From IMG/VR virus record IMGVR_UViG_3300000116_000228, positions 1 through 23,824 of that record: a stretch of DNA of 23,824 bases; one strand, 5' to 3'. The translations under genes and the position numbers were made by a program. A model generated the notes under the pieces. It searched no databases. It was not told the origin of the DNA and saw nothing but the letters and a program-made list of their open reading frames with translations. Positions 4,367-17,862 of the stretch are shown here, piece after piece. Positions within the stretch are counted from its first letter, which is position 1. Each line of letters begins with the position of its first letter. Source of the stretch: a virus.

Positions 4367-4461
4367 TAGGTCTATTTTTTTTAGGAATACCTGTAACAGT
4401 ATTAGCAATGTATATATTATTAAAAGCAAGGGAGGGTGATGATAATAACAGGAGTAGATAA
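4363..4461 (+). CDS. Tiny single-pass membrane protein
   Basis: 32 residues. One hydrophobic helix (about residues 3-20, LFFLGIPVTVLAMYILL) followed by a short charged tail. Start overlaps the nuclease stop (ATGA), and its end runs 23 bp into the glycosyltransferase gene. No family recognised. Its reality rests on the coupled start and the well-formed helix-plus-charged-tail layout; a non-coding linker that carries the next gene's ribosome binding site remains possible. Confidence 0.5.
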   Translation: MIGLFFLGIPVTVLAMYILLKAREGDDNNRSR

Positions 4462-5080
4462 GAACCATGAAGACATGGTTATCTGGTGGTATGAAAATGT
4501 TAAAAGACATAATCCAGATGTAAAAGTAGGCATATGGGATTTTGGTATGTCTATGCAAATGAGAGAAGTAGTTAAAGGTATAGACGCATGGTTAAGTGAC
4601 CCTATTACACACCCTAGTAACATAGGTTGGTTTAATAAAACAAGAGCAGTTATAGATACACCAAGTCAATCAGTTGCATGGTTAGATGTAGATTGTGAAG
4701 TCTTAACAAACATAGAAGAAATATTTTCATTAGTGCCACCTAACATGATAGGTCTTACTAGAGATTGGGTAAGAGACAATTGGTGGGCAACTGGCGTTAT
4801 AGTTGTTAATGATAGACCAGAATTACTCAAACATTGGAATGAAATGTTGTTAAAGACAGCAATCAGAGGCGACCAAGAAATGTTATTTGAAATAGTTGGT
4901 AAAGAAGTACATGATGAAATACAAGAATTGCCACAAGAATATCAATGGTTAAGAATATCATTAAATAAAGGCGTAGATAGTCCAACTAAAAAGATTATTC
5001 ACTGGACAGGACCTAAAGGTAAAAAATTTATAAGAGAACATTTGAAACAAGGTAGAAAGTATAAAGGTGAAACTGTATGA
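4439..5080 (+). CDS. GT-A glycosyltransferase, GT8-like
   Basis: 213 residues from the ATG at 4439; GTG at 4436 is directly adjacent and also possible. A strong GGAGG lies at 4431-4435. Family features in order: Rossmann-like start MIITGVDKNH, metal-binding Asp83-x-Asp85 in WLDVDCEVL, NWWATGVIVVN (acceptor loop, like the NsGvm motif of GT8), GDQEMLFE, and a C-terminal HWTGPKGK with His188 (matching the HfnG.KPW metal/diphosphate motif). Expected to transfer a sugar from a nucleotide-sugar donor. It opens a block of three consecutive glycosyltransferase-like genes and overlaps the next by ATGA. Acceptor unknown. Confidence 0.85.
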   Translation: MIITGVDKNHEDMVIWWYENVKRHNPDVKVGIWDFGMSMQMREVVKGIDAWLSDPITHPSNIGWFNKTRAVIDTPSQSVAWLDVDCEVLTNIEEIFSLVPPNMIGLTRDWVRDNWWATGVIVVNDRPELLKHWNEMLLKTAIRGDQEMLFEIVGKEVHDEIQELPQEYQWLRISLNKGVDSPTKKIIHWTGPKGKKFIREHLKQGRKYKGETV

Positions 5081-6168
5081 TAAATGAAAATACTATTTCT
5101 ATATTAACACCTACAAGAAATAGACCTAACAATTGTGAAAGGTTTATTAAATCAATATATGCAACAGCAAGTGATAAGACTAAGATAGAATTATTTTTTT
5201 ATGTTGATAATGATGACCCAGCATTAGAACAATACAAATCTTTAGCTGCTCATTGTGATAGTGAATATAAAGATTTTAAAAAAGTAGATTTTACATTTGG
5301 TGAACCTAAAAGTGTTTCTCTTTCATGGAATGATTTAGCAGCTAAGAGTTCAGGTTATTTAATGATTATGGGTAATGATGATTTAATTTATAGAACTGCT
5401 AATTGGGATAGTTTACTCATACAAAATTTAGCAATAAGATATAAAGAGGATCCATATTGGGTTAGTTGGGTCAATGATGGTATCAATGCTGATAGACATT
5501 GTGCCTTTCCTATTATTGCAAGAGAGTGGTATAATACTGTAGGATATTTTGCACCTGGTTGTTTTCATTTTGGTTACAACGATACATGGGTATTTGATAT
5601 TGCAAAGAGATTAGAAAGAACACATTATATTAATAACATACTTGTTGAACATATGCATTTTTCAAAAGGCAAAAGTGATATGGACGATACATATGCTCAT
5701 AATAGAACAGGACCTAGAGGTAATCTATATCAAAAAGATAAAGGGATTATGTACCATGTACATCAGGTAAATAGAAGAATAGAAGAAGCAGAAAAAATTA
5801 AACAAGAGATAAACAAGATAAAAGGTCCGTCTTTAAAAGCACAAGTGATTGAAGATATACCTGAATATGAATTAGTATTTGTACAGAAACTACAAAAAGA
5901 ATGGCAAGCTTCTTCACATAAACTAAAACAAGACCCATTAAAAGAACAGACAGAAAAATATAATAAACTATGTGAGAGTATAAAAAAACATGGTATGAAA
6001 TATCCTATTCTGATTGATGGCGAAAACAAAGTATTACGAGGCAATCAACGAGCATGGTATTGTATTGATAATGATATTAAATATATTAGTGCTTATAGAA
6101 TTAAAGATAGTGTTATAGATAAGTTTATTCAGAAAACATATATTGACGGTGACGAATACCCTCTATGA
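5077..6168 (+). CDS. GT2-like glycosyltransferase fused to a C-terminal ParB-like domain
   Basis: 363 residues. N-terminal part (about 1-240) is a GT2/GT-A fold: SILTPTRNRP at 8-17, FYVDNDDP with Asp44/Asp46/Asp47, and NDD at 100-102 in MIMGNDDL as DxD equivalent. After a charged helical linker (about 230-290), residues about 293-345 resemble the ParB/sulfiredoxin superfamily: KLCESIKKHG, then PILID, then VLRGNQRAW with the G-x-x-R-x-x-A pattern, then a short hydrophobic strand. ParB-like domains bind DNA or act as nucleotide-dependent enzymes, so fusion to a glycosyltransferase is unusual and may tie sugar transfer to DNA or to a phosphorylation step. Coupled by ATGA on both sides. The GT assignment is firm; the ParB-like call is by motif only. 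Confidence 0.85.
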   Translation: MINENTISILTPTRNRPNNCERFIKSIYATASDKTKIELFFYVDNDDPALEQYKSLAAHCDSEYKDFKKVDFTFGEPKSVSLSWNDLAAKSSGYLMIMGNDDLIYRTANWDSLLIQNLAIRYKEDPYWVSWVNDGINADRHCAFPIIAREWYNTVGYFAPGCFHFGYNDTWVFDIAKRLERTHYINNILVEHMHFSKGKSDMDDTYAHNRTGPRGNLYQKDKGIMYHVHQVNRRIEEAEKIKQEINKIKGPSLKAQVIEDIPEYELVFVQKLQKEWQASSHKLKQDPLKEQTEKYNKLCESIKKHGMKYPILIDGENKVLRGNQRAWYCIDNDIKYISAYRIKDSVIDKFIQKTYIDGDEYPL

Positions 6169-6887
6169 TATATGCTCTATATAGAATCCACTATGGATTA
6201 GATTTCTTAGAAAAATCAATTAACTCAATCATTGATGATGTTGATATGATTTTTATATACTGGTCTAAACAACCTTGGTATAAAGGTTGTAAAGATTTAC
6301 CACCTATGAATGAGAATGTAAAAGAGTATTGCAAAAGATGGAATGGTAAAGTAAATGTTATAGAAAGAGAATTTGACCTACCATCAGGACAATATACTCA
6401 AATGTATGCAGACATGATTACAGGTCATACAATACCAAAAAAAGTATTAATGATGGAACCTGATATGGTGTGGGACAAAGAACAATTAAAAAAAGCATTA
6501 GAACTAACAGATCCAGAAATTTCATTTAAACAAATAGAATTTTGGAAGAATGAAGAATGGTATATAAAAAGAACTAGAGAAAGACCAGGACCTACATTGT
6601 ATAATCAGGCACCAGGTCTTACAGGTAAAGGTACTGCTACGAATACACATCTGATAAATAATAATATATATTGTTATAATTATGGATTTTGTTTAAGCAA
6701 AGAAGTGATGAAGTATAAGTTTGAAGTCGCCATACAATCATCCAAACATTATAAAGATAGTATACCTTCTAAAGATTGGTATGAAAAGAAATGGTTAAAC
6801 TGGACACCAGAGACGGAAGATTTAGAAATGTCAGAAGCACATAAACACTACATTAAAAAGGCACTACCATATGGCACTAAAGATTAA
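6165..6887 (+). CDS. Putative GT-A glycosyltransferase-like protein
   Basis: 240 residues starting MIYALYRIHYG. The first half reads as a GT-A fold: a start strand, SIINSIIDDVDMIFIYWSK-like segment, and VLMMEPDMVW at about 95-103 where Glu98-x-Asp100 sits in the position of the DxD metal motif. The second half is rich in Tyr, Trp and Asn and ends with a His/Lys-rich tail (EAHKHYIKKALPY). It follows two stronger glycosyltransferases with an ATGA overlap, which supports a shared pathway. The family is less certain than for its neighbours, and the acceptor is unknown. Confidence 0.65.
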   Translation: MIYALYRIHYGLDFLEKSINSIIDDVDMIFIYWSKQPWYKGCKDLPPMNENVKEYCKRWNGKVNVIEREFDLPSGQYTQMYADMITGHTIPKKVLMMEPDMVWDKEQLKKALELTDPEISFKQIEFWKNEEWYIKRTRERPGPTLYNQAPGLTGKGTATNTHLINNNIYCYNYGFCLSKEVMKYKFEVAIQSSKHYKDSIPSKDWYEKKWLNWTPETEDLEMSEAHKHYIKKALPYGTKD

Positions 6888-8241
6888 AGATTACGAACCA
6901 GTTAGAGTACATACTAAAGAAGGTTCTGAAATAGGTCTCTATAAAAAATTAACAGAAGCAGGTACTCAATATGTTATCTATAGACATGCTGCCAGAGGTA
7001 AGATTAAAAACTTTGTTGGTAATTATGAATACATTGATAACAATAATGTATCACATTTAAAACCTATAGACTTAGAATACGGTAATAAAATTTTAGATAG
7101 AGTAGAACAAGGAATGAAATATTCCAATATCTATATTTTCTATGATGTAAAAAGTGAAGATACAAAATTACCAGATGAACCAAGTGAACAAGAACATAAA
7201 TTTACATCTACAGGTATTAAATGGTGGCGACACCAAGAAGCAATGTTTAATTACAAATCTGGTAATCCTAATACAGTTATTTCTACACACATAAGTCCTG
7301 AAGGTGCATGTAATCTTAAATGCCCATATTGTAGTGTAACATATAGAGATACACATACAAGAATAGATTTAGATACAATCAAAGACTATGTAACAAAATT
7401 AAAAACAAGAGGACTGAAAGCAGTAATATTAACTGGTGGTGGTGAACCTACTGCTTATAAACACTTCAATGAATTAGTGCGTTGGTTATATGGCGAAGGA
7501 TTAGAAGTGGCACTTATTAGTAATGGTAGTAAACAATATTGGAAACGAATAGACGAAGATGTATGTAAAATGTTTAGTTGGGTTAGAATATCAATTAATG
7601 TATTTACAGATTGGGAAAACAGAATTGGTTTACCATTAGAAAAATTTGATATGAATAAAACGATTGTAGGTAACTCAATGGTTTATACAGTAGAACACGA
7701 ACTATCAGACGAAGTAATGGCAGATAGAGTTGGGTTACTAGATAAAGTTTCTAAAGTGGCAGACGCTTGTGGTAGTAAGTATATAAGATTATTACCTAAC
7801 TGTTTATTAGAACAAGAGAATTTAATTAGACAACATAAAAGTTTAGACAATGTATTGTCACAGGTAACAGATACAAGATTTTTTCATCAATACAAAATAC
7901 ATGGAGCACCTAAAACACCAACATGTCATCAATCATATTTCAGACCTTATCTAAGTGAAGAAATACATAAAGAGACAGGTAAACCAGGTACTGTTTATCC
8001 TTGTGATAGCGTTGTATTGAATGATAACTATGAACACTTTGCTGAAGAATATCAGTTATGCCATGCTAGTGATATACTAGACTACTTGGATAAAAAAGTA
8101 TTACAAAAATTTGACGCAACAAAAAGATGTACAGGTTGTGTCTTTACTGATAATGTCAATATGCTTGATGATTTTATAAATGATAAAGTTAACAGGTTTG
8201 ACGAATTTAAGGAGCCGTTGACACATGAAAACTTTGTTTAA
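6871..8241 (+). CDS. Radical SAM enzyme with Cys-rich C-terminal region
   Basis: 456 residues. Residues 1-135 are an N-terminal region I do not recognise. The radical SAM core follows: Cys147-x3-Cys151-x2-Cys154 (ACNLKCPYC) binds the [4Fe-4S] cluster, TGGGEPT at 188-194 is the SAM-binding GGE motif, and ALISNGS and VRISINVF are later barrel strands. C-terminal cysteines at 352, 378, 397, 420 and 423 resemble a SPASM/twitch-type auxiliary cluster region. Such enzymes generate a 5'-deoxyadenosyl radical to rearrange, methylate, dehydrogenate or cross-link a substrate; which applies here is unknown. The start at 6871 lies 17 bp inside the preceding glycosyltransferase gene, and the gene ends 17 bp inside the methyltransferase gene. 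Confidence 0.93.
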   Translation: MALKIKDYEPVRVHTKEGSEIGLYKKLTEAGTQYVIYRHAARGKIKNFVGNYEYIDNNNVSHLKPIDLEYGNKILDRVEQGMKYSNIYIFYDVKSEDTKLPDEPSEQEHKFTSTGIKWWRHQEAMFNYKSGNPNTVISTHISPEGACNLKCPYCSVTYRDTHTRIDLDTIKDYVTKLKTRGLKAVILTGGGEPTAYKHFNELVRWLYGEGLEVALISNGSKQYWKRIDEDVCKMFSWVRISINVFTDWENRIGLPLEKFDMNKTIVGNSMVYTVEHELSDEVMADRVGLLDKVSKVADACGSKYIRLLPNCLLEQENLIRQHKSLDNVLSQVTDTRFFHQYKIHGAPKTPTCHQSYFRPYLSEEIHKETGKPGTVYPCDSVVLNDNYEHFAEEYQLCHASDILDYLDKKVLQKFDATKRCTGCVFTDNVNMLDDFINDKVNRFDEFKEPLTHENFV

Positions 8242-8953
8242 ACCAGGTCAATTCTTTGACGAAAATTATTACGAAAGAGGTGCAGAAACAGGTAAGAGTT
8301 TGTATTCACATTATAGATGGATGCCAGAACTCACAATACCTATGTGCCATCACATTGCCAAATACCTAGAATTAAAAGAAACAGATAAAGTATTAGACTT
8401 TGGTTGTGCCAAAGGATTTTCAGTATATGGTCTTAGACTATTAGGTTATAAGGCATATGGTGTAGATGTATCAGAATATGCAGTTAAGAAATCACCAGAA
8501 GAAATAAGAAAGTGGTTAGGTGTAATAGAACCACAAGAAGAATTAACATGTGCTGAAGGTGGTTATGACTGGATACTTTGTAAAGATATATTAGAACATG
8601 TACCCTATGAAAATATAGAACAACAACTGGAAGTATTTCACAAAGGTGGTAAAAGATTATTTGTGATTGTACCTATAGGTCGTAATGGTAAATATTTAAT
8701 TGATAGTTATGAACAAGACAAGTCACACTTTATTAAAGAAGATATAGATTGGTGGACTAAAAAGATAGAAGACGCAGGTTTTGAGATAGACTTAGCAACT
8801 TATGATTTAGGTCCTTTTAAAAAGAACTGGCAATTTGAACCAGAAGGTAATGCCTTAATTATGGCAACAAGACCAAATACTTTACACGAAGATTTAATGA
8901 TAGGTTTTAAAGAAGAACAAAGACAAAGAGAATTAGAAGAAGAAGACGAGTGA
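8225..8953 (+). CDS. Class I SAM-dependent methyltransferase
   Basis: 242 residues. Motif I is KVLDFGCAKGF (about 55-65), motif II acidic residue is Asp81 in YGVDVSEYA, and the post-I region has DWILCKDILEHVP, typical of small-molecule or sugar methyltransferases of the UbiE/Methyltransf_11 type. No DNA-methylase catalytic motif (DPPY/NPPF or PCQ) is visible, so DNA base methylation of the Dam or Dcm kind is unlikely. It has a good GGAG site upstream of the ATG at 8225 and overlaps the carbamoyltransferase by GTGA. Probably O- or N-methylates the product of the surrounding sugar cassette. The C-terminal tail is strongly acidic. Confidence 0.88.
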   Translation: MKTLFKPGQFFDENYYERGAETGKSLYSHYRWMPELTIPMCHHIAKYLELKETDKVLDFGCAKGFSVYGLRLLGYKAYGVDVSEYAVKKSPEEIRKWLGVIEPQEELTCAEGGYDWILCKDILEHVPYENIEQQLEVFHKGGKRLFVIVPIGRNGKYLIDSYEQDKSHFIKEDIDWWTKKIEDAGFEIDLATYDLGPFKKNWQFEPEGNALIMATRPNTLHEDLMIGFKEEQRQRELEEEDE

Positions 8954-10482
8954 TTATATTAGGATTATATTTTGGTCATAATGCTGCTGCCTGTGTACTT
9001 AAAGATGGCGAAGTATTAATCAATTGGGAACTAGAAAGATTTACGAGAATAAAACATGACTTTGGTTTTAGTCAGGAGTTTATTGATAAGACATTAGAAC
9101 ATTGTGGTTTAACAATGAATGATGTTGACCATATTGCATGTAATAATCCAGGCACAATTACTAGATGGATTGAACAACACATGCCAGAAAGAAAATTAAA
9201 TTTTAAAGTACCTAGTGCAAAGACTTTAGAATATAAAAAGTTTGATAGAGGTTACATTGTTAATCATCATTTAGCACACGCAGCTTCAACATACTATACA
9301 AGTCCTTTTGATACTGCCACAATCTTTACATGGGACGGTGGTGGTGATAGTGAGAACTCTAGTGTATCACAAGGTGTTGGTAATAAGATAGAACAATATA
9401 AACCTGACGCAAGAAAGAACTTAGCGGCATACTGGTCAAGTATTACAATCAATAATTATAGAATGAAAAGAGTACATGAATGGGACCCAGGTTCTGGTGC
9501 AGGTAAAGTTATGGGTCTTGCAAGTTATGGTAATGCTAATGAAGATTTGATAAGAACGATAGAGAGAACATTATCAGAGGCACCAAGACATGAATATTAT
9601 GATCCACGAGCCAGAGCATATAACAATTGCGAAGACTTATCAGATACAAAAACATCTAATAGTCAAAATGTGGCAGCAAGTTTACAAAGTCTTACTACAC
9701 GAACACTACTAACTGAAATAGATGATATTTACACAGGTAATCAAAACTTATGTTATGCAGGTGGACTTGCGTTAAATTGTATTGCAAATAGAGAGATTAT
9801 CAAACAGACAAAGTTTGAAAAATTGCATGTTCCTCCGTTTCCTAACGACACAGGATTAGCAATAGGGTGTGCTTTGTACATCTGGCACCATGTGTTAGAT
9901 AACCCTAAGAAAACATCATATTTTAGTCCTTATACAGGACCAGATTATAATGTAGGACAACCTGACATTGAAAGAGTTGGTAACCTACTTGCAGATAATA
10001 AAGTTATATGTTACTATGAAGGTCGTAGTGAGAGTGGACCTAGAGCATTAGGACATAGAAGTATTTTATGTAATCCAGGTATTGATGGCATAAGAGATAG
10101 ATTAAACTACAAAGTAAAAATGAGAGAATGGTACAGACCATATGCACCTATTATACCTGAAGAAAATGCCAAAGAAATGTTATTAGATTATAACGAATGG
10201 TCACCTTATATGCAAACAAGTGCCATAGTTAAACATGAGTATGATGAGGCATTATCAGGCGTTACACAAGTTGATGGTAGTACAAGAGCACAAATTTTAA
10301 AACACGACCATAATGAAACACTATATAATATTATACAACAAAGTAAATTGCCTGCTTTGTTGAATACAAGTTTTAACTACCAAGAACCTATAGTTGAAAC
10401 ACCTGAACAGGCGAAGGCAACATTTGATAGAATGAAAGATGTTGATGTATTAGTAATTGGAGATAAAATATATGAAAGATAG
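8950..10482 (+). CDS. NodU/CmcH-family carbamoyltransferase
   Basis: 510 residues with a GTG start overlapping the previous stop (GTGA). Enzymes of this family transfer a carbamoyl group from carbamoyl phosphate, via carbamoyl-adenylate, to a hydroxyl on a sugar or other small molecule. Motifs in order: GLYFGHNAAACVL at the N terminus, NHHLAHAAS (His106/107/110, metal site), FTWDGGGD, GSGAGKVMGLASYG, CYAGGLALNC, FPNDTGLAIG, then the C-terminal domain with EGRSESGPRALGHRS, WYRPYAPIIPEE and LLNTSFNYQEPIVETP. Length is slightly short of the usual 540-600 residues but both lobes are present. Phage members are known in base-hypermodification clusters and in sugar decoration; either fits here. Confidence 0.95.
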   Translation: MIILGLYFGHNAAACVLKDGEVLINWELERFTRIKHDFGFSQEFIDKTLEHCGLTMNDVDHIACNNPGTITRWIEQHMPERKLNFKVPSAKTLEYKKFDRGYIVNHHLAHAASTYYTSPFDTATIFTWDGGGDSENSSVSQGVGNKIEQYKPDARKNLAAYWSSITINNYRMKRVHEWDPGSGAGKVMGLASYGNANEDLIRTIERTLSEAPRHEYYDPRARAYNNCEDLSDTKTSNSQNVAASLQSLTTRTLLTEIDDIYTGNQNLCYAGGLALNCIANREIIKQTKFEKLHVPPFPNDTGLAIGCALYIWHHVLDNPKKTSYFSPYTGPDYNVGQPDIERVGNLLADNKVICYYEGRSESGPRALGHRSILCNPGIDGIRDRLNYKVKMREWYRPYAPIIPEENAKEMLLDYNEWSPYMQTSAIVKHEYDEALSGVTQVDGSTRAQILKHDHNETLYNIIQQSKLPALLNTSFNYQEPIVETPEQAKATFDRMKDVDVLVIGDKIYER

Positions 10483-11230
10483 AATTGACCACATAGTAAA
10501 ATGGATAAAAGATTATGCAAACAAATATAACAAGACAACATTAGTTATAGGTGTATCAGGTGGTATAGATAGTGCAGTAGCGTCAACGCTATGTGCTATG
10601 ACAGGTATCAAAGTCATACCAATTGTAATGTCAATTAAAAATAAAGATACATTAGCATTAGAACATGCTTGGTGGTTAGATGAGAATTTTGATAATGTAA
10701 GTCGTAGAGTTATTAACTTAGAAAAAATATTCCATGAGTTTGAAAACGCAAGTAATTATCTAGGTGCTGATAGTAAATTAGCATTTGCAAATAGTCGTAG
10801 TAGATTAAGAATGATGATGTTATATCAAGTGGCACAAAGTAGTAATGGATTAGTTGTAGGCACAGGTAACAAAGTAGAAGATTTTGGTGTAGGTTTCTAT
10901 ACTAAGTATGGTGATGGTGGTGTTGATATATCACCTATTGCAGATTGTATGAAAACAGATGTATGGAAAATTGCAAAAGAATTAAATATATTACAATCAA
11001 TACAAGAGGCAAAACCAACAGATGGTTTATGGGACGATGGAAGAACAGATGAAGACCAACTTGGTATGAGTTACGAAGAATTAGAAAAAGCAATGAAGCA
11101 AGACCAAATGGGTGCCATTGTTACTAAACCTAGTGACCAAGAAAGAATGAGTATATATATGAAACATAGAAAACAAAATTTACATAAGATGGAACCTATT
11201 CCAGTATGTAGCATGGAGAAATTTAAATGA
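10472..11230 (+). CDS. nadE: NH3-dependent NAD+ synthetase
   Basis: 252 residues from the ATG at 10472, which has GGAG at 10459-10462; the upstream TTG at 10457 would sit on the ribosome binding site. It amidates nicotinate adenine dinucleotide to NAD+ using ATP and ammonia. The ATP pyrophosphatase P-loop is SGGIDSA (about 29-35), followed by NSRSRLRMMMLY, the signature GTGNKVEDF, FYTKYGDGGVDISPIAD, KTDVWKIAKEL and PTDGLWDDGRTDEDQLGMSY. There is no N-terminal glutaminase domain. Set between the carbamoyltransferase and an NAD-dependent dehydrogenase, it may feed that enzyme with NAD+ or refill the pool during infection. The TDGLWDDGRTDE variant suggests a subgroup often seen in polysaccharide or specialised-metabolite clusters (from memory). 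Confidence 0.93.
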   Translation: MKDRIDHIVKWIKDYANKYNKTTLVIGVSGGIDSAVASTLCAMTGIKVIPIVMSIKNKDTLALEHAWWLDENFDNVSRRVINLEKIFHEFENASNYLGADSKLAFANSRSRLRMMMLYQVAQSSNGLVVGTGNKVEDFGVGFYTKYGDGGVDISPIADCMKTDVWKIAKELNILQSIQEAKPTDGLWDDGRTDEDQLGMSYEELEKAMKQDQMGAIVTKPSDQERMSIYMKHRKQNLHKMEPIPVCSMEKFK

Positions 11231-12372
11231 AAGTAGGATTTATAGGACTAGGTAAACTAGGCAGAGACGCAGCTGAAGTATTAGCAGAAAAACATGATGT
11301 AACAGGTTATGACCCTCATGTAGATGTACCAGGTTTATCAGGTACACAAGAACAAGCATGTAAAGGTAAAGATGTAGTTTTAATTGCAGTACAAACACCA
11401 CATGACCCTTTGTATGACGGTAAAGACCCAACATCACATTTACCACCAAAAGATTTTGATTACTCTTACATTATAGAGGCAACGAAACAAGTTGACGCAT
11501 TAGTAGATAAAGGTACTTTAATTTCTGTTATATCAACTATGTTACCAGGTACTGTAAGAAAACAAATACAACCACTTGTACAAAATGGTCAGTTTATTTA
11601 CAATCCTTATTTGATTGCACAAGGTACTGTAAAATGGGATATGAAAAATCCTGAAATGATTATGATAGGTACGGAAGATGGCAAAGAAAGTTTAGCAGTA
11701 GATATGTTGCATGACTTATATGACCCTATCTTAGAGAAAGAAGTAAGATATGAATTAGGTACATGGGAAGAAATAGAAGCATTAAAAGTATTCTACAATA
11801 CCTTTATATCTACAAAACTTGCATTAGTGAATATGATACAAGACACAGCAATGAATGTTGGTCATATGAATGTTGATGTGGTAACAAATGCATTGAAAAA
11901 TAGTACACAAAGAATTATGGGACCTAGTTATATGAAAGCAGGTTTTGGTGACGGTGGTGGTTGCCATCCTAGAGATAATATCGCATTAAGAGTATTGAAT
12001 GAAAGATACCAATATGGTTATGACTTGTTTGATAGTATTATGAAAGCAAGAGAAGAACAAGCTGCCAACATGGCAAGATATTGTTTATCTTTTCAAATGC
12101 CTGTAGTTATACTAGGTAAGGCATTTAAACCTGGCATTGACCAAACGGCAGGAAGTCCTTCTATGTTAGTTGGTTGGTATGTAGAAAAGTTAGGTAGTCA
12201 AAAAGTACATTATGATAAAGCACCTGATGGTGGTGCATACACTTATCTTATACATGATAAAGGTTTGATACCTGAAGAATGGAATCCTGGTAGTTGTATT
12301 ATAGACCCTTATAGAGAATTAGGTCCAGTTAAAAATTGTGTGGTAAAACATTATGGTAACACTCGCAGATAG
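11227..12372 (+). CDS. UDP-glucose/GDP-mannose dehydrogenase-family protein, divergent
   Basis: 381 residues. The NAD-binding fold starts MKVGFIGLGKLG; IAVQTPHDP and ISTMLPGTV follow, then the central helix EALKVFYNTFISTKLALVN with Lys187 and Asn191, the catalytic loop GDGGGCHPRD with Cys246, and the C-terminal LGKAFKPGIDQTAGSP. These enzymes oxidise a nucleotide sugar's C6 alcohol to a carboxylate in two NAD-dependent steps. Odd points: the usual PEF/PER..E segment reads NPYLIAQG, so two conserved glutamates are missing, and the Lys after the catalytic Cys is Arg249. A different sugar or a one-step reaction is possible. GGAG upstream and an ATGA overlap with nadE support co-expression with NAD supply. 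Confidence 0.9.
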   Translation: MKVGFIGLGKLGRDAAEVLAEKHDVTGYDPHVDVPGLSGTQEQACKGKDVVLIAVQTPHDPLYDGKDPTSHLPPKDFDYSYIIEATKQVDALVDKGTLISVISTMLPGTVRKQIQPLVQNGQFIYNPYLIAQGTVKWDMKNPEMIMIGTEDGKESLAVDMLHDLYDPILEKEVRYELGTWEEIEALKVFYNTFISTKLALVNMIQDTAMNVGHMNVDVVTNALKNSTQRIMGPSYMKAGFGDGGGCHPRDNIALRVLNERYQYGYDLFDSIMKAREEQAANMARYCLSFQMPVVILGKAFKPGIDQTAGSPSMLVGWYVEKLGSQKVHYDKAPDGGAYTYLIHDKGLIPEEWNPGSCIIDPYRELGPVKNCVVKHYGNTRR

Positions 12373-15081: not shown

Positions 15082-15110
15082 TTGACAAAAGCACTCTTTT
15101 ATGATAGGAT
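15082..15110 (+). promoter_or_regulatory. Sigma70-type promoter
   Basis: Consensus TTGACA (15082-15087), 17-bp spacer, TAGGAT (15105-15110). Predicted start near 15117, only about 5 bases before the ATG at 15122, so the message would be nearly leaderless. The LexA-box-like repeat lies just upstream. Confidence 0.7.
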
Positions 15111-15121
15111 ATAGACAATAG

Positions 15122-15499
15122 ATGGCAATAATTTATACACACAATACGTCTGGTGCAATAAGACGTTTAAAAAGAAGAAGACCCACTAAAGAATATATGA
15201 TTGCTTTAGCAAAGCATATCAAGTATTTAAAAAAACTAGGTCTAAAAGTGAATGATAAAGGTAGAATTGTAATGAAACAAAACCCAAAATATACAACTGT
15301 TACATATAACGAGATTTCAAAAGACAGTACGAAAAGACTAGACGCAGAATACTGGATTAATAAAAAATTTTCAGGTGGTACAAAACCTGTAAATAACTGG
15401 CGACTTGAAGAAAGTAAAAATTTTACTATCGCTCCTGCCTACAACAAAGGTGCTTATCAAGTAATTACTAAATCTAATGTGAAAGACATAGGTAAGTAG
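15122..15499 (+). CDS. Basic hypothetical protein
   Basis: 125 residues starting MAIIYTHNTSGAIRRLKRRRPTK. The N terminus is very basic, the middle carries KYLKKLGLKVNDKGRIVM, and the C-terminal half is Asn/Lys-rich with aromatic residues (EYWINKKF, NNWRLEESKNF). A nucleic-acid-binding role is plausible from charge alone. I have a weak recollection of short phage proteins beginning MxxIYSNNTSG.I.R, supporting the start at 15122 despite no ribosome binding site. Its promoter is immediately upstream, and a hairpin with T-rich tail follows the stop. Confidence 0.7.
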   Translation: MAIIYTHNTSGAIRRLKRRRPTKEYMIALAKHIKYLKKLGLKVNDKGRIVMKQNPKYTTVTYNEISKDSTKRLDAEYWINKKFSGGTKPVNNWRLEESKNFTIAPAYNKGAYQVITKSNVKDIGK

Positions 15500-15583: not shown

Positions 15584-15910
15584 ATGACTACAAAAACTAT
15601 ACAACAAAAAGTTAAAGAGAACGATTTATCTATGCAAGGTATTTTGAAAGAGTTTAACTCTTACGATAACCCTTTAGACAAAGCTAAATTTCTTAGAGAA
15701 ATGGGTGGGTTAAATTTACCCTATGATGTGAATTGGGAGAGACTTGCTCAAGGATATGACGGCACGAAACCTTTTCCTGTCATTAAGAAAGTTGATGAAG
15801 ATGAAGGTGATGAAGATATCCTTTCTGATAGAGTTTCAATGGACTCAGTTGGTCATGCAGAAGCACACGGTGATCCTTTAACTAAAAGGGAATTGGATGC
15901 GTTACTTTAG
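15584..15910 (+). CDS. Hypothetical acidic protein
   Basis: 108 residues starting MTTKTIQQKVKENDL. N-terminal two thirds look folded (helices plus LNLPYDVNWERLAQGYDG); residues about 70-82 are an acidic run (KKVDEDEGDEDIL), and the end is KRELDALL. Strong GAGGAG site before the ATG in the shared ACTATAATATG context. No family recognised. A TATATT at 15552 could be a -10, but no convincing -35 is visible. Its last 14 bases overlap the lipoprotein gene. Confidence 0.7.
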   Translation: MTTKTIQQKVKENDLSMQGILKEFNSYDNPLDKAKFLREMGGLNLPYDVNWERLAQGYDGTKPFPVIKKVDEDEGDEDILSDRVSMDSVGHAEAHGDPLTKRELDALL

Positions 15911-16247
15911 TATCGCAATAATATTGACAATGTTAACTGGTTGTGGAAGTATGAATGATAGAACTGTCCACGCCAGTTTATTTGTTGACCATTTAAATAA
16001 TATGCCTATTGGTAAAACTAATTATTTTATGTGGCACAATAGTGCCACAGGTAATCAAGGTAATGTTAAGATTGTGAATAGTTATGTACATAAGTCAGGT
16101 GCTAAATGTGTTGATTATCAATCTACAGTTAATATACAAGATAGCTGGCCAATGAATTTTCCTGGTAGTTTAGATAGAAGTACAGAATTTGGTAAGGCAT
16201 GTCAAATGCCTGATGGCAGATGGAGAATAATAGAGAGGGTAATGTAA
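15897..16247 (+). CDS. Lipoprotein resembling the 17-kDa surface antigen family
   Basis: 116 residues. Type II signal peptide MRYFSIAIILTMLTGC with lipobox LTGC (Cys16), so an envelope lipoprotein. The C-terminal half matches the pattern of the alphaproteobacterial 17-kDa surface antigen domain (17kDa_Anti_2, COG4520): GAKCVDYQSTV (Cys71) aligns with the C-R-E-Y/F-x-x-T-V strand, and GKACQMPDGRWRII (Cys102) aligns with the A-C-R-Q-P-D-G-S-W closing motif. The two cysteines probably pair. The usual glycine-zipper segment is absent, so it is a shortened version. Good site (AAGGG) before the ATG; TAATG overlap with the next gene. May alter the host surface, for example in superinfection exclusion. 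Confidence 0.75.
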   Translation: MRYFSIAIILTMLTGCGSMNDRTVHASLFVDHLNNMPIGKTNYFMWHNSATGNQGNVKIVNSYVHKSGAKCVDYQSTVNIQDSWPMNFPGSLDRSTEFGKACQMPDGRWRIIERVM

Positions 16248-16450
16248 TGACAAAAGAATATAGTTCACATGATTGGAGAAAGAATACAGATGGTGCTATT
16301 GTTGAAGATGGTGATTATAGTATGAAAGTAAATGACAGTAGAGTTATCTTTATTAATCCACACACATTAAAAGAAGAAACAATTGATGTGTCCAGATTGA
16401 TTAGAGTATTTGTAAACAATCAAACACAGATGAGGAAAAGTATAAAATGA
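16247..16450 (+). CDS. Small hypothetical protein
   Basis: 67 residues starting MTKEYSSHDWRKNTDG. The ATG at 16247 overlaps the lipoprotein stop (TAATG) and is served by GAGAGGG; an earlier in-frame ATG at 16220 is inside the lipoprotein gene and unlikely. Beta-prone, soluble (YSMKVNDSRVIFINPHT), with a basic C terminus. No recognised family. Ends in ATGA with a tiny membrane protein gene. Confidence 0.7.
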   Translation: MTKEYSSHDWRKNTDGAIVEDGDYSMKVNDSRVIFINPHTLKEETIDVSRLIRVFVNNQTQMRKSIK

Positions 16451-16572
16451 ATATGTTTTATGGTATAATTGTTTCATTGGCGATACTATTAGTACCTGTT
16501 GGTATGATGTATTCAATGAATAAAGAAAAACCAAAAGAGAAGAAACCAATTTATAATGATGATACTGTATGA
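16447..16572 (+). CDS. Tiny single-pass membrane protein
   Basis: 41 residues. Hydrophobic helix at about 4-22 (FYGIIVSLAILLVPVGMMY), then a Lys/Glu/Pro-rich cytoplasmic-type tail (KEKPKEKKPIYNDDTV). Start overlaps the preceding stop (ATGA) and has a GAGG site 10-13 bases upstream; its stop overlaps the next ATG (ATGA). The unbroken chain of overlapping starts makes it convincing despite its size. Function unknown. Confidence 0.65.
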   Translation: MNMFYGIIVSLAILLVPVGMMYSMNKEKPKEKKPIYNDDTV

Positions 16573-16895
16573 GACAACCAAACTTTAATGTAATGTTTTT
16601 TATTGTATTGATATTAGCAATATTAATCTGGTCAGGTGCAATAGCAAATGACGAGACACCTAAATTCACAAAGAGTAATTGTGTTATAGAAGTTATCTAT
16701 GATGAAAACATGGAGAACGAAGTCAGTAGAAAAATGATATGTAGAGACGGTGTTATAGGTCCTACTTACTGGCAACTATTCGCTCAATTTTATTACGGAC
16801 AGGATAATGTGCCTGCCTACTGTAGAAAAGTTGAAGGCGGTTTAATACCTGATACGGTATGTTTAACAAATGAAGGCACGTGGGAGAAACAATGA
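16569..16895 (+). CDS. Exported or membrane-anchored Cys-containing protein
   Basis: 108 residues. N-terminal hydrophobic stretch (FNVMFFIVLILAILIWSGAIA, about 6-26) is a signal peptide or anchor, followed by a small extracytoplasmic domain with four cysteines (CVIEV, MICRDG, AYCRKV, DTVCLT) that could form two disulfides. Coupled by ATGA at both ends. I do not recognise the fold. Its position among lipoproteins and membrane proteins suggests an envelope role. Confidence 0.7.
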   Translation: MRQPNFNVMFFIVLILAILIWSGAIANDETPKFTKSNCVIEVIYDENMENEVSRKMICRDGVIGPTYWQLFAQFYYGQDNVPAYCRKVEGGLIPDTVCLTNEGTWEKQ

Positions 16896-17008
16896 AGTTA
16901 ATCTTTGGTATGATAATAGGTGGTATAATAGTATATCACAATCCAGATATTGGGTTTGATATATACCACAATTCAATAGAGTATATAAGAGAGGTGATAA
17001 GAAAATGA
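16892..17008 (+). CDS. Tiny membrane-associated protein
   Basis: 38 residues: a short glycine-containing hydrophobic start (MKLIFGMIIGGIIVY) followed by an amphipathic, Tyr/His/Asn-rich tail (HNPDIGFDIYHNSIEYI). GGGAG site upstream and ATGA overlaps on both sides. Function unknown; I have a faint recollection of similar very short ORFs in marine phage genomes. Confidence 0.6.
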   Translation: MKLIFGMIIGGIIVYHNPDIGFDIYHNSIEYIREVIRK

Positions 17009-17598
17009 ATAAAATAATAATAATGATTTTACTAGGTCTATTAGTTACAGGTTGTGCTAAGACAGTAAAAATTGAACATGAAGGACAGACCAAGTCTGGT
17101 ATGTTAGAAGAAGTACCTAAATGGTTCGTAGAAAAAGAAGGTAAGAAAGGTCTCTTTAATAAAAAAGACAAGTTTTATCTTTATGGTGTAGGTGTGGCAA
17201 CAAGTCCAGATTTACAACTTGCAATGGACAAAGCAACAATGGTAGCGAAAGCTGACTTAGCAGATGTAATGCATGGTGAAATGAATAAGAATGCTAATGT
17301 GTTTATACAAGAACTAGGACAAGAAGGTTCTAAAATTATAAACTCTAAAGCAGAGTCCACAATTGTAAACATAATTAAACAAACTAAAGTACAAGGTTAT
17401 GAACAATGGCAGATTGCTGTATCTATAACCGGAGACAATGAGTATAGAGTTTACATGGGTTTACAGTTACCGTTAGGTGAGTTAAACAAGTTAGCGGAAC
17501 TGGTAAAAGCAGAAGCTAAAAAAGATATAAATATGGCAGAAGCTAATATTAAAGCGAATGACGCTATAGAAAGTTTAACAGAAATAGCAACGGAGTAA
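17005..17598 (+). CDS. LPP20-like lipoprotein
   Basis: 197 residues. Signal peptide MNKIIIMILLGLLVTGC with lipobox VTGC (Cys17). The mature part resembles the LPP20 family: P38-x-W40 (VPKWF), then FYLYGVGVATSPD at about 58-69 followed by an alanine-rich helix (LAMDKATMVAKADLA), a helical middle with KAESTIVNIIKQTKV, and a beta strand YRVYMGLQLP. The C-terminal about 40 residues are an Ala/Lys/Glu-rich helix. LPP20 proteins are outer-membrane or periplasmic lipoproteins of poorly known role. AGAGAGGTGA site before the ATG. Last member of the envelope gene run. Confidence 0.75.
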   Translation: MNKIIIMILLGLLVTGCAKTVKIEHEGQTKSGMLEEVPKWFVEKEGKKGLFNKKDKFYLYGVGVATSPDLQLAMDKATMVAKADLADVMHGEMNKNANVFIQELGQEGSKIINSKAESTIVNIIKQTKVQGYEQWQIAVSITGDNEYRVYMGLQLPLGELNKLAELVKAEAKKDINMAEANIKANDAIESLTEIATE

Positions 17599-17601
17599 AT
17601 A

Positions 17602-17862
17602 ATGTATAAAGTATTTTCAAAAGATAATTGTGTCTATTGCACAAAGGCAAAGTCCTTACTCAATAGTATAAATTTACCTTTTGAGGAACATAAACTGTCG
17701 CCTACTTTTACACCAGATAAAATGTTTGAAATGATAGGCAAACAAGTACGGTCTATGCCTCAAATTATGAAAGATGATGAGTTGATTGGTGGTTATACTG
17801 ATTTGCGAGAACATCTAATAAATGAAGGTAAAATCAATTTTCAAGGTGAAACCAAGGAATAA
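17602..17862 (+). CDS. grx: Glutaredoxin
   Basis: 86 residues, normal for a phage glutaredoxin. The redox site is Cys10-Val-Tyr-Cys13 (NCVYCTKAK), the cis-Pro loop is RSMPQI (Pro53), and GGYTDL (63-68) is the glutathione-contacting GG[YF]xDL motif. It accepts electrons from glutathione and probably reduces the C-terminal cysteines of NrdA, linking it to the reductase genes at the start of the window although about 14 kb away. GGAG site upstream in GGAGTAAATAATG. The 50-bp gap after it holds only the next gene's ribosome binding region. Confidence 0.94.
   Translation: MYKVFSKDNCVYCTKAKSLLNSINLPFEEHKLSPTFTPDKMFEMIGKQVRSMPQIMKDDELIGGYTDLREHLINEGKINFQGETKE

What the first reader, a model, noticed from the sequence alone, without database searches (positions are those of the whole stretch)
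15897..16247. Phage-encoded relative of the alphaproteobacterial 17-kDa surface antigen
Lipobox plus the two C-terminal family motifs (CVDYQSTV and ACQMPDGRWRII), but without the glycine zipper. The family is a hallmark surface lipoprotein in Rickettsiales and other Alphaproteobacteria. A phage copy suggests gene capture from the host and a role in changing the outer membrane during infection, perhaps blocking further infections or stabilising the envelope.
Basis: partly seen in the sequence, partly recalled or inferred. Interest (0 to 1): 0.55.

Follow-up and report, generated by a model that had tools for sequence, protein, structure and literature searches.

The report
Early phage lipoprotein in envelope-gene cassette
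A virus of the most abundant ocean bacterium carries a small membrane-anchored protein related to a common bacterial surface antigen, set in a fixed group of envelope genes that a few host bacteria also carry in their chromosomes, and probably used early in infection to alter the cell surface.

Summary
In detail: window 15897-16247 encodes a 116-aa lipoprotein, gene gp173 of Pelagibacter phage HTVC008M (window 99.7% identical). The record already calls it 'putative outer membrane protein ... surface antigen protein'. It matches Pfam 17kDa_Anti_2 at E=2.3e-4, below the curated cut-off (21.4 vs 26.6 bits). An alignment with bacterial 17-kDa antigens supports homology of the C-terminal domain.

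New here:
(1) The phage family has two forms. Mosig-type relatives carry a Gly/Ala-rich hairpin that this clade lacks.
(2) The gene leads a cassette, antigen - secreted Cys protein - LPP20-like lipoprotein - glutaredoxin, in 88 of 88 loci long enough to show it.
(3) Homologues of the first three, plus a small secreted protein, sit side by side in a few Pelagibacterales chromosomes (4 of 147; two more).
(4) A sigma70-type promoter lies two genes upstream in 26 of 26 distinct short-form loci, pointing to early expression.

Recent capture from the present host is not supported: host copies are rare and form a separate clade. Best explanation: an early outer-membrane lipoprotein cassette that excludes further phages. 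The exclusion step is inferred.

The parts
15082..15110 (+). sigma70-type promoter TTGACA-17-TAGGAT with extended -10 (TGA), upstream of gp171
   Evidence: 33 sites found in the region against 30.9 in shuffles, so alone not evidence; conserved at 35-40 nt upstream of gp171 in 26 of 26 distinct short-form upstream sequences, random 120-nt background 7.4%; intergenic
15122..15499 (+). gp171, small protein of unknown function; its family lies upstream of the antigen in 68 of 81 loci with 1.5 kb upstream
15584..15910 (+). gp172, small protein; its end overlaps the antigen gene's start by 14 nt
15897..16247 (+). gp173: lipoprotein, divergent relative of 17kDa_Anti_2 (the finding)
15933..15944 (+). 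lipobox LTGC; lipid-attachment Cys16 at 15942-15944
   Evidence: sequence; Cys16 invariant in A3; lipobox rule recalled
16107..16130 (+). CVDYQSTV motif; Cys71
   Evidence: sequence; Cys invariant in A3
16197..16232 (+). ACQMPDGRWRII motif; Cys102
   Evidence: sequence; Cys invariant in A3
16247..16450 (+). gp174, 67 aa, unknown
16447..16572 (+). gp175, 41 aa, one hydrophobic segment
16569..16895 (+). gp176: N-terminal hydrophobic anchor or signal and a periplasmic Cys domain; four Cys invariant with the host homologue
   Evidence: profile match to host ORFs E 1.4e-4 to 7.1e-4
16892..17008 (+). gp177, 38 aa, hydrophobic N-terminus
17005..17598 (+). gp178: LPP20-like lipoprotein (lipobox VTGC); Pfam LPP20 only at E=0.12 here and 0.0044 in Mosig
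   Evidence: host homologues E 4e-34 to 1e-35
17526..17533 (+). TATAAATA, T4-type late-promoter motif inside gp178, upstream of glutaredoxin; present in 16 of 24 short-form loci
   Evidence: late-promoter meaning recalled
17602..17862 (+). gp179 glutaredoxin, next gene of the conserved order; probably serves ribonucleotide reductase
   Evidence: role inferred

Best explanation
gp173 is an outer-membrane lipoprotein made early in infection, one part of a phage envelope cassette (antigen-like lipoprotein, exported Cys protein gp176, LPP20-like lipoprotein gp178) that remodels the infected cell's outer membrane so that further phages, and the phage's own progeny meeting cell debris, do not bind or inject productively. 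Inferred steps: the protein is exported, lipidated on Cys16 and moved to the outer membrane; the conserved Cys71 and Cys102 form a disulphide that holds a five-stranded beta domain; in this clade, which has no membrane hairpin, the domain probably faces the periplasm and acts on a host outer-membrane protein from inside, as T5 Llp does on FhuA; in Mosig-type phages the added hairpin could insert in the membrane, as TraT's helices do. Shown: gene, lipobox, family relation, conserved cassette, host homologue cluster, conserved sigma70-type promoter. Not shown: expression time, location, partner, exclusion.
For: Lipobox and invariant Cys. Cassette kept in order in 88 of 88 loci with 2.6 kb downstream, and in the reverse direction 15 of 15 LPP-anchored loci with enough upstream sequence have the antigen gene. 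Promoter TTGACA-17-TGnTAnnnT in 26 of 26 distinct short-form upstreams, with divergent spacer; the late motif TATAAATA lies after the lipoprotein genes, not upstream of the antigen, 176 or LPP genes (0 of 26, 28, 26). Three of four short-form cassette products examined carry export signals or anchors. Homologous chromosomal cluster in Pelagibacterales. Precedents: T5 Llp lipoprotein blocks FhuA from the periplasmic side (PMC9586334, abstract and passages); TraT surface-exclusion lipoprotein has lipidated, membrane-inserted helices and a beta-sandwich (PMC11733297, passages), and is among the top rows for the long-form model's hairpin, weakly (Z 5.9, rmsd 4.8, 50 residues).
Against: No expression, localisation or phenotype data. 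The long-form phages do not share the upstream promoter pattern (0 of 31 with the strict pattern; 6 of 32 with the loose one). The single-sequence promoter scan is no better than shuffles. The structural matches are below Z 8 and may be only a common arrangement; Foldseek found nothing at E<=0.001 in PDB. The models are modest (pLDDT 76.5 and 75.2). No PADLOC match. Host chromosomes with the same cluster show that its function need not be viral. Loci were fetched by the antigen gene and include near copies, so 88 of 88 overstates independent evidence.
Confidence: 0.42

Rival explanations
1. Envelope maintenance: the cassette stabilises or keeps sealed the outer membrane of the streamlined host during infection, standing in for host lipoproteins that are degraded or no longer made, without excluding other phages.
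For: The same gene families form a chromosomal cluster in some Pelagibacterales, where a phage-exclusion role is not needed. The phage also carries other envelope genes: CsgF, CsgG, a CsgB-like gene and an outer membrane porin.
Against: Most Pelagibacterales sampled lack the cluster (4 of 147 have it), so it is not a general need of the host envelope.
Confidence: 0.25
2. Lysis role: an outer-membrane lipoprotein (gp173) and an anchored periplasmic protein (gp176) act as a spanin-like pair or control lysis together with the nearby endolysins.
For: The topologies (lipoprotein beside a protein with an N-terminal hydrophobic anchor) resemble an o-spanin/i-spanin pair; two endolysin genes lie downstream. 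PMC9004378 proposes a lysis role for the phage CsgGF (passages seen).
Against: The promoter upstream is of the sigma70 type and the late motif lies after the lipoprotein genes. Chromosomal homologues outside a prophage setting do not fit a dedicated lysis device. A beta domain with two invariant Cys is unlike the spanins I recall.
Confidence: 0.12
3. Part of a secretion or appendage assembly: the two lipoproteins build a ring or pilotin-like complex with the phage CsgG/CsgF, or with host pili.
For: LPP20-like proteins in two other alphaproteobacterial genomes lie next to an ORF that looks like CsgG/FlgO (resemblance recalled). A pilin-like gene lies inside or beside the host cluster in three of four regions. 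The phages carry CsgG and CsgF (PMC7029224 section 11).
Against: In HTVC008M csgF-csgG lie about 19 kb away across the record's ends, not in the cassette. The fourth host region, L215, shows no pilin gene in its listing.
Confidence: 0.12
4. Recent capture of a host surface-antigen gene.
For: The family is common in the class (203 of 385 over the cut-off).
Against: Rare and divergent in the SAR11 order; phage clade separate from host copies (96/95); 23-25% mean identity of phage to host B copies, 29-30% to other bacteria.
Confidence: 0.05

Closest known systems
17kDa_Anti_2 (PF16998), alphaproteobacterial 17-kDa surface antigen lipoproteins
   Same: Lipobox; C-terminal domain with W[YH]NxxTGNxG, Cys-x-[DE]-Y, GxACxxPDGxW; two invariant Cys.
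   Different: Below the gathering score; no glycine zipper; about 10 extra residues with a conserved aromatic-Pro between two strands, in the phage rows only; conserved FVDHLN helix.
Mosig EXVC030M gene 171 product and its IMG/VR relatives (long form)
   Same: 41-46% identity for most pairs with HTVC008M (39-48% range), same gene order.
   Different: About 44 more residues: a Gly/Ala-rich two-helix hairpin with two Cys.
Pelagibacterales chromosomal cluster (M173-like, LPP20-like, 176-like, 17-kDa-like A and B)
   Same: Four gene families shared with the phage cassette.
   Different: Order differs, no glutaredoxin seen beside it, two antigen-like genes; divergent (23-25% mean identity in the antigen domain).
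TraT surface-exclusion lipoprotein (F plasmid)
   Same: Works-like: lipoprotein, and in the long form a helical hairpin before a beta domain (PMC11733297 passages).
   Different: No Pfam TraT match for P0001 at E<=10; structural match weak and only over the hairpin; the HTVC008M protein has no hairpin.
T5 Llp superinfection-exclusion lipoprotein
   Same: Works-like: small lipoprotein of a lytic phage; Llp acts from the periplasmic side (PMC9586334 passages).
   Different: Sequence relation not tested; receptor of HTVC008M not examined here.

Membership tests
17kDa_Anti_2 (PF16998) | score over the curated gathering cut-off (26.6 bits) | tested here: not met
   HTVC008M protein 21.4 bits, E=2.3e-4; Mosig protein 20.2 bits
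17kDa_Anti_2 (PF16998) | C-terminal domain motifs and Cys pair | tested here: met
   10 invariant columns in 41 rows, bacterial copies included; all 41 match PF16998 at E<=0.1
17kDa_Anti_2 (PF16998) | lipobox with lipid-attachment Cys | tested here: met
   LTGC16; the Cys is invariant in A3. Lipidation itself not tested
17kDa_Anti_2 (PF16998) | glycine zipper after the lipobox, in this protein | tested here: not met
   absent from the 116-aa protein
17kDa_Anti_2 (PF16998) | glycine zipper, in the long-form phage relatives | tested here: inconclusive
   Gly/Ala-rich hairpin present, but a profile of it finds no bacterial zipper at E<0.01 (best 6.6 bits; shuffled control 5.9)
TraT (PF05818) | profile match | tested here: not met
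   no match for P0001 at E<=10 nor for the Mosig protein at E<=1; the scan of A3 lists TraT for 3 of 41 members, not named
TraT (PF05818) | oligomeric ring with membrane helices | not testable with these tools
   only monomer models made; weak match of the long-form hairpin, Z 5.9
LPP20 (PF02169), for the neighbour gp178 | score over the gathering cut-off (25.9 bits) | tested here: not met
   13.2 bits in HTVC008M, 17.9 in Mosig
Phage superinfection-exclusion lipoproteins (T5 Llp type) | blocks infection by a second phage | not testable with these tools
   needs an experiment; early-type promoter is indirect support
Spanins | complements outer-membrane disruption in lysis | not testable with these tools
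   no spanin profile search aimed at this was made; PHROGs gave no lysis family for P0001, gp176 or gp178

The most novel reading that the evidence does not exclude
Pelagimyophages carry a dedicated surface-exclusion cassette (antigen-like lipoprotein, Cys protein, LPP20-like lipoprotein, often a small helical exported protein) that exchanges with host chromosomes: the rare Pelagibacterales that carry the same cluster use it as a chromosomal immunity that blocks phage entry at the outer membrane, so one gene set serves phage against phage and host against phage.
Probability: 0.22. Interest if true: 0.75.

Novelty: new variant of a known kind. Interest (0 to 1): 0.52.

Why it matters
Phages of SAR11 are among the commonest viruses in the sea, yet how they handle the envelope of their host is little studied. 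A conserved, probably early, outer-membrane lipoprotein cassette found in both pelagimyophages and a few Pelagibacterales chromosomes gives a concrete set of genes with which to test surface exclusion in SAR11 phages, and a case of an envelope gene cluster shared by phage and host. The two forms of the antigen-like protein, with and without the membrane hairpin, offer a natural comparison of what the hairpin does in a large and poorly understood bacterial antigen family.

Tried and rejected
Rejected or empty: PHROGs (only weak matches for P0001, E 0.033 and 0.089) and NCBIfam (no match near a cut-off) did not name the protein. PDB sequence search of the Mosig protein gave only chance immunoglobulin-type hits (best E 0.058). 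Foldseek PDB search of the short model gave nothing at E<=0.001; VIA-align rows for it are all below Z 8 (best 6.5); BFVD gave the protein itself (M1I816, 100% identity) and nothing else at E<=0.001. PADLOC gave nothing for 10 proteins of the phage and host clusters. Sequence homology of the long-form hairpin with bacterial glycine zippers was tested and not found. Recent host capture was considered and set aside. Direction of the exchange between phage and Pelagibacterales was tried with an antigen tree (95 columns, long branches meet, phage plus host against other bacteria only 81/75) and an LPP tree (host clade 100/100 but joined to phages in an unresolved fork): unresolved. Melnitz, a related phage of another host, has an LPP homologue (E 4.8e-27) but no clear antigen or 176 gene among the ten neighbouring CDS examined. 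The LPP relatives in G090 and G134 have no antigen gene beside them. Literature: 'pelagiphage'+'surface antigen' gave 2 unrelated-looking papers by title and abstract start, 'pelagimyophage'+'lipoprotein' none, 'pelagiphage'+'superinfection'+'lipoprotein' one Psychrobacter phage paper, 'HTVC008M'+'outer membrane' six, of which I searched two: neither holds 'lipoprotein' or 'surface antigen' in its main text. Supplements were not open to me.

Full report
What it is. The window is a stretch of Pelagibacter phage HTVC008M or a near twin: 99.7% identity over 100% of the query to NC_020484 119943-143763. So the name is not new.

Family. Pfam gives 17kDa_Anti_2 at E=2.3e-4, 21.4 bits, cut-off 26.6. 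The Mosig relative scores 20.2 bits. A scan of reference genomes with an alignment of phage proteins found 19 loci. One, L131, is a phage-like contig in a Rickettsiales bin; the other 18 are bacterial, mostly Alphaproteobacteria, and most encode lipoproteins with a glycine zipper and the same C-terminal pattern. Eleven of the 19 loci were put in the alignment; near copies, two divergent ones and L131 were left out. In A3 (41 rows) ten columns are invariant: Cys16, Trp46, Asn48, Thr51, Asn53, Gly55, Cys71, Cys102, Asp106, Trp109 in HTVC008M numbering. Each of the 41 rows matches PF16998 on its own at E<=0.1. I therefore take homology of the C-terminal domain as well supported, but do not file the protein as a canonical member, because two defining features (cut-off and zipper) were tested and not met.

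Two forms. The first viral scan gave 44 loci. A scan with the Mosig protein found 425 loci with a relative, of which the best 80 were kept. Of 125 loci read, a script assigned an ATG and lipobox to 117, giving 79 distinct sequences, one of them a truncated fragment (L044). The other 78 fall in two size classes, 114-120 and 157-176 aa. All 78 have the lipid Cys and the C-domain pair; the long ones have two more Cys in an added Gly/Ala-rich stretch. AlphaFold models: short form, pLDDT 76.5, pTM 0.59, a long N-terminal helix and five strands; long form, pLDDT 75.2, pTM 0.52, a helical hairpin, then five strands. The second look with VIA-align puts a Legionella Dot/Icm outer-membrane subunit (Z 6.0) and TraT (Z 5.9, rmsd 4.8, 50 residues; another TraT entry Z 5.2) among the top rows for the hairpin. 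These are below Z 8 and may be only a common arrangement. The hairpin has no significant sequence similarity to bacterial zippers, so 'lost zipper' is an inference from position and character; gain in the long form is not excluded. In the antigen tree short and long are each one group (94/92 and 94/94).

Cassette. With tblastn of HTVC008M and Mosig genes against 126 loci, 88 loci had at least 2.6 kb downstream of the antigen gene: all 88 have gp176, gp178 and glutaredoxin families downstream, and 83 have gp180 as well in order. Loci were fetched by the antigen and include near copies. A separate scan by gp178 gave 24 loci; 15 had 1150 bases or more upstream and all 15 have the antigen gene. 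gp173 and gp178 have lipoboxes; gp176 has a strongly hydrophobic N-terminus.

Host cluster. A 16S probe pattern recalled from memory marked G236 and G325 as SAR11; it falls in loci with a full bacterial 16S gene. In the order of G236, PF16998 at E<=0.01 hits 4 of 147 genomes, none over the cut-off; the A4 profile hits the same four. In a class sample 218 of 385 match at E<=0.001 and 203 pass the cut-off. In the four genomes (G419, G490, G546, G547) phage profiles searched against 223 ORFs of the four regions hit neighbouring ORFs every time: LPP E 4.4e-34 to 1.1e-35, M173 3.5e-7 to 1.5e-12, antigen to copy B 8.4e-9 to 1.7e-10, antigen to copy A only 0.0066 to 0.075, 176 family 7.1e-4 to 1.4e-4. 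Four Cys are invariant between phage and host 176 proteins in six rows. The LPP protein search alone gives 8 of 147 at E<=1e-4, with only these four below 1e-80. In the genus of G419, 6 of 121 match the LPP profile at E<=1e-5, three strongly (G419, G606, G651); beside the LPP gene, G606 has 176-like and antigen-like ORFs (0.0032, 2.7e-6) and G651 has M173-like, 176-like and a weaker antigen-like ORF (4.3e-11, 4.2e-5, 0.004). Flanking genes checked in two of the four regions are housekeeping or metabolic (tartrate dehydrogenase, glucosylphosphoglycerate synthase, sfsA, map, purB, purC), and the G419 contig is 1.46 Mb, so the cluster is chromosomal.

Origin. Phage antigens form one clade (96/95) and host A plus B another (98/97); phage plus host against other bacteria has 81/75 only, and long branches meet. 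Mean identities over the domain: phage to host B 23-25%, phage to other bacteria 29-30%. The LPP tree keeps host copies as one clade (100/100) but does not root them inside or outside phages. Recent capture from SAR11 is not supported; an old exchange is, direction unknown.

Timing. TTGACA-17-TAGGAT with an extended -10 lies at 15082-15110, intergenic, 12 bases before gp171. In the region as a whole promoter-like sites are no more than in shuffles (33 against 30.9). But upstream of the gp171 family the pattern occurs in 26 of 26 distinct short-form sequences, 35-40 nt before the start codon, with differing spacers, against 7.4% of random 120-nt windows; with a stricter pattern 25 of 25 short and 0 of 31 long. 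TATAAATA is seen before glutaredoxin in 16 of 24 short-form loci and before none of the antigen, 176 or LPP genes. In T4-type phages sigma70 sites serve early and TATAAATA late genes (recalled). I infer early expression in the short-form phages; for long-form phages I have no such evidence, and the conserved sites upstream of 176 and LPP there lie in coding sequence.

Mechanism. An early, outer-membrane lipoprotein with a disulphide-held beta domain and partners fits surface or superinfection exclusion best. T5 Llp acts on FhuA from the periplasmic side (PMC9586334, abstract and passages); TraT has lipidated, membrane-inserted helices and an extracellular beta domain (PMC11733297, passages). 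The short form has no membrane hairpin and would be Llp-like in position; the long form could be TraT-like. This step is inference. Envelope maintenance is the main rival.

Literature. The two pelagimyophage-related papers that I searched (PMC7029224: passages and section 11; PMC9004378: passages) discuss phage CsgG and CsgF but hold neither 'lipoprotein' nor 'surface antigen' in their main texts. Other searches found no discussion of this gene or cassette. Most subscription papers are outside the library, including, as far as I know, the original HTVC008M description.

Noticed in passing
NC_020484.1 7562-9557 and 28040-28897 (L226): HTVC008M carries CsgF, CsgG, a CsgB-like gene and an 'outer membrane porin' gene, so the antigen is one of several envelope genes.
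   Followed up: partly
window 13466 and 15057: A repeated motif, GAACAAAAC[AG]AGAACA, lies before the gp165 and gp171 genes, the second just upstream of the conserved promoter.
   Followed up: no
window 17526-17533: TATAAATA inside gp178, upstream of glutaredoxin, kept in 16 of 24 short-form loci: a likely switch from early to late transcription.
   Followed up: partly
L213:8585-9094, L216:6929-7438: A type IV pilin-like gene (GFTLIELLVVVAIIG) lies inside or beside the host antigen cluster.
   Followed up: no
L231:8738-10805 (G090): LPP20-like lipoprotein next to an ORF with a CsgG/FlgO-like 'CIAVLPF' stretch (resemblance recalled), without an antigen gene.
   Followed up: partly
L131 (G001, Rickettsiales bacterium MED606): A Mosig-like phage contig binned into a bacterial metagenome assembly; it is the only PF16998 match in that genome.
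   Followed up: partly
L046:5427-5816 and window 16569-16895: The 176 family's C-terminus weakly resembles the 17-kDa domain (PF16998, E=0.1 for the Mosig protein): perhaps a distant paralogue.
   Followed up: partly
L216:10466-10936 (G547): A third, weak antigen-like ORF near the host cluster (A4 profile E=0.007).
   Followed up: no
window 4436-12372: A surface-sugar-like block: glycosyltransferase, carbamoyltransferase, methyltransferase, UDP-glucose dehydrogenase by annotation, and an ORF at 6871-8241 with a radical-SAM-like CxxxCxxC stretch (by eye).
   Followed up: no
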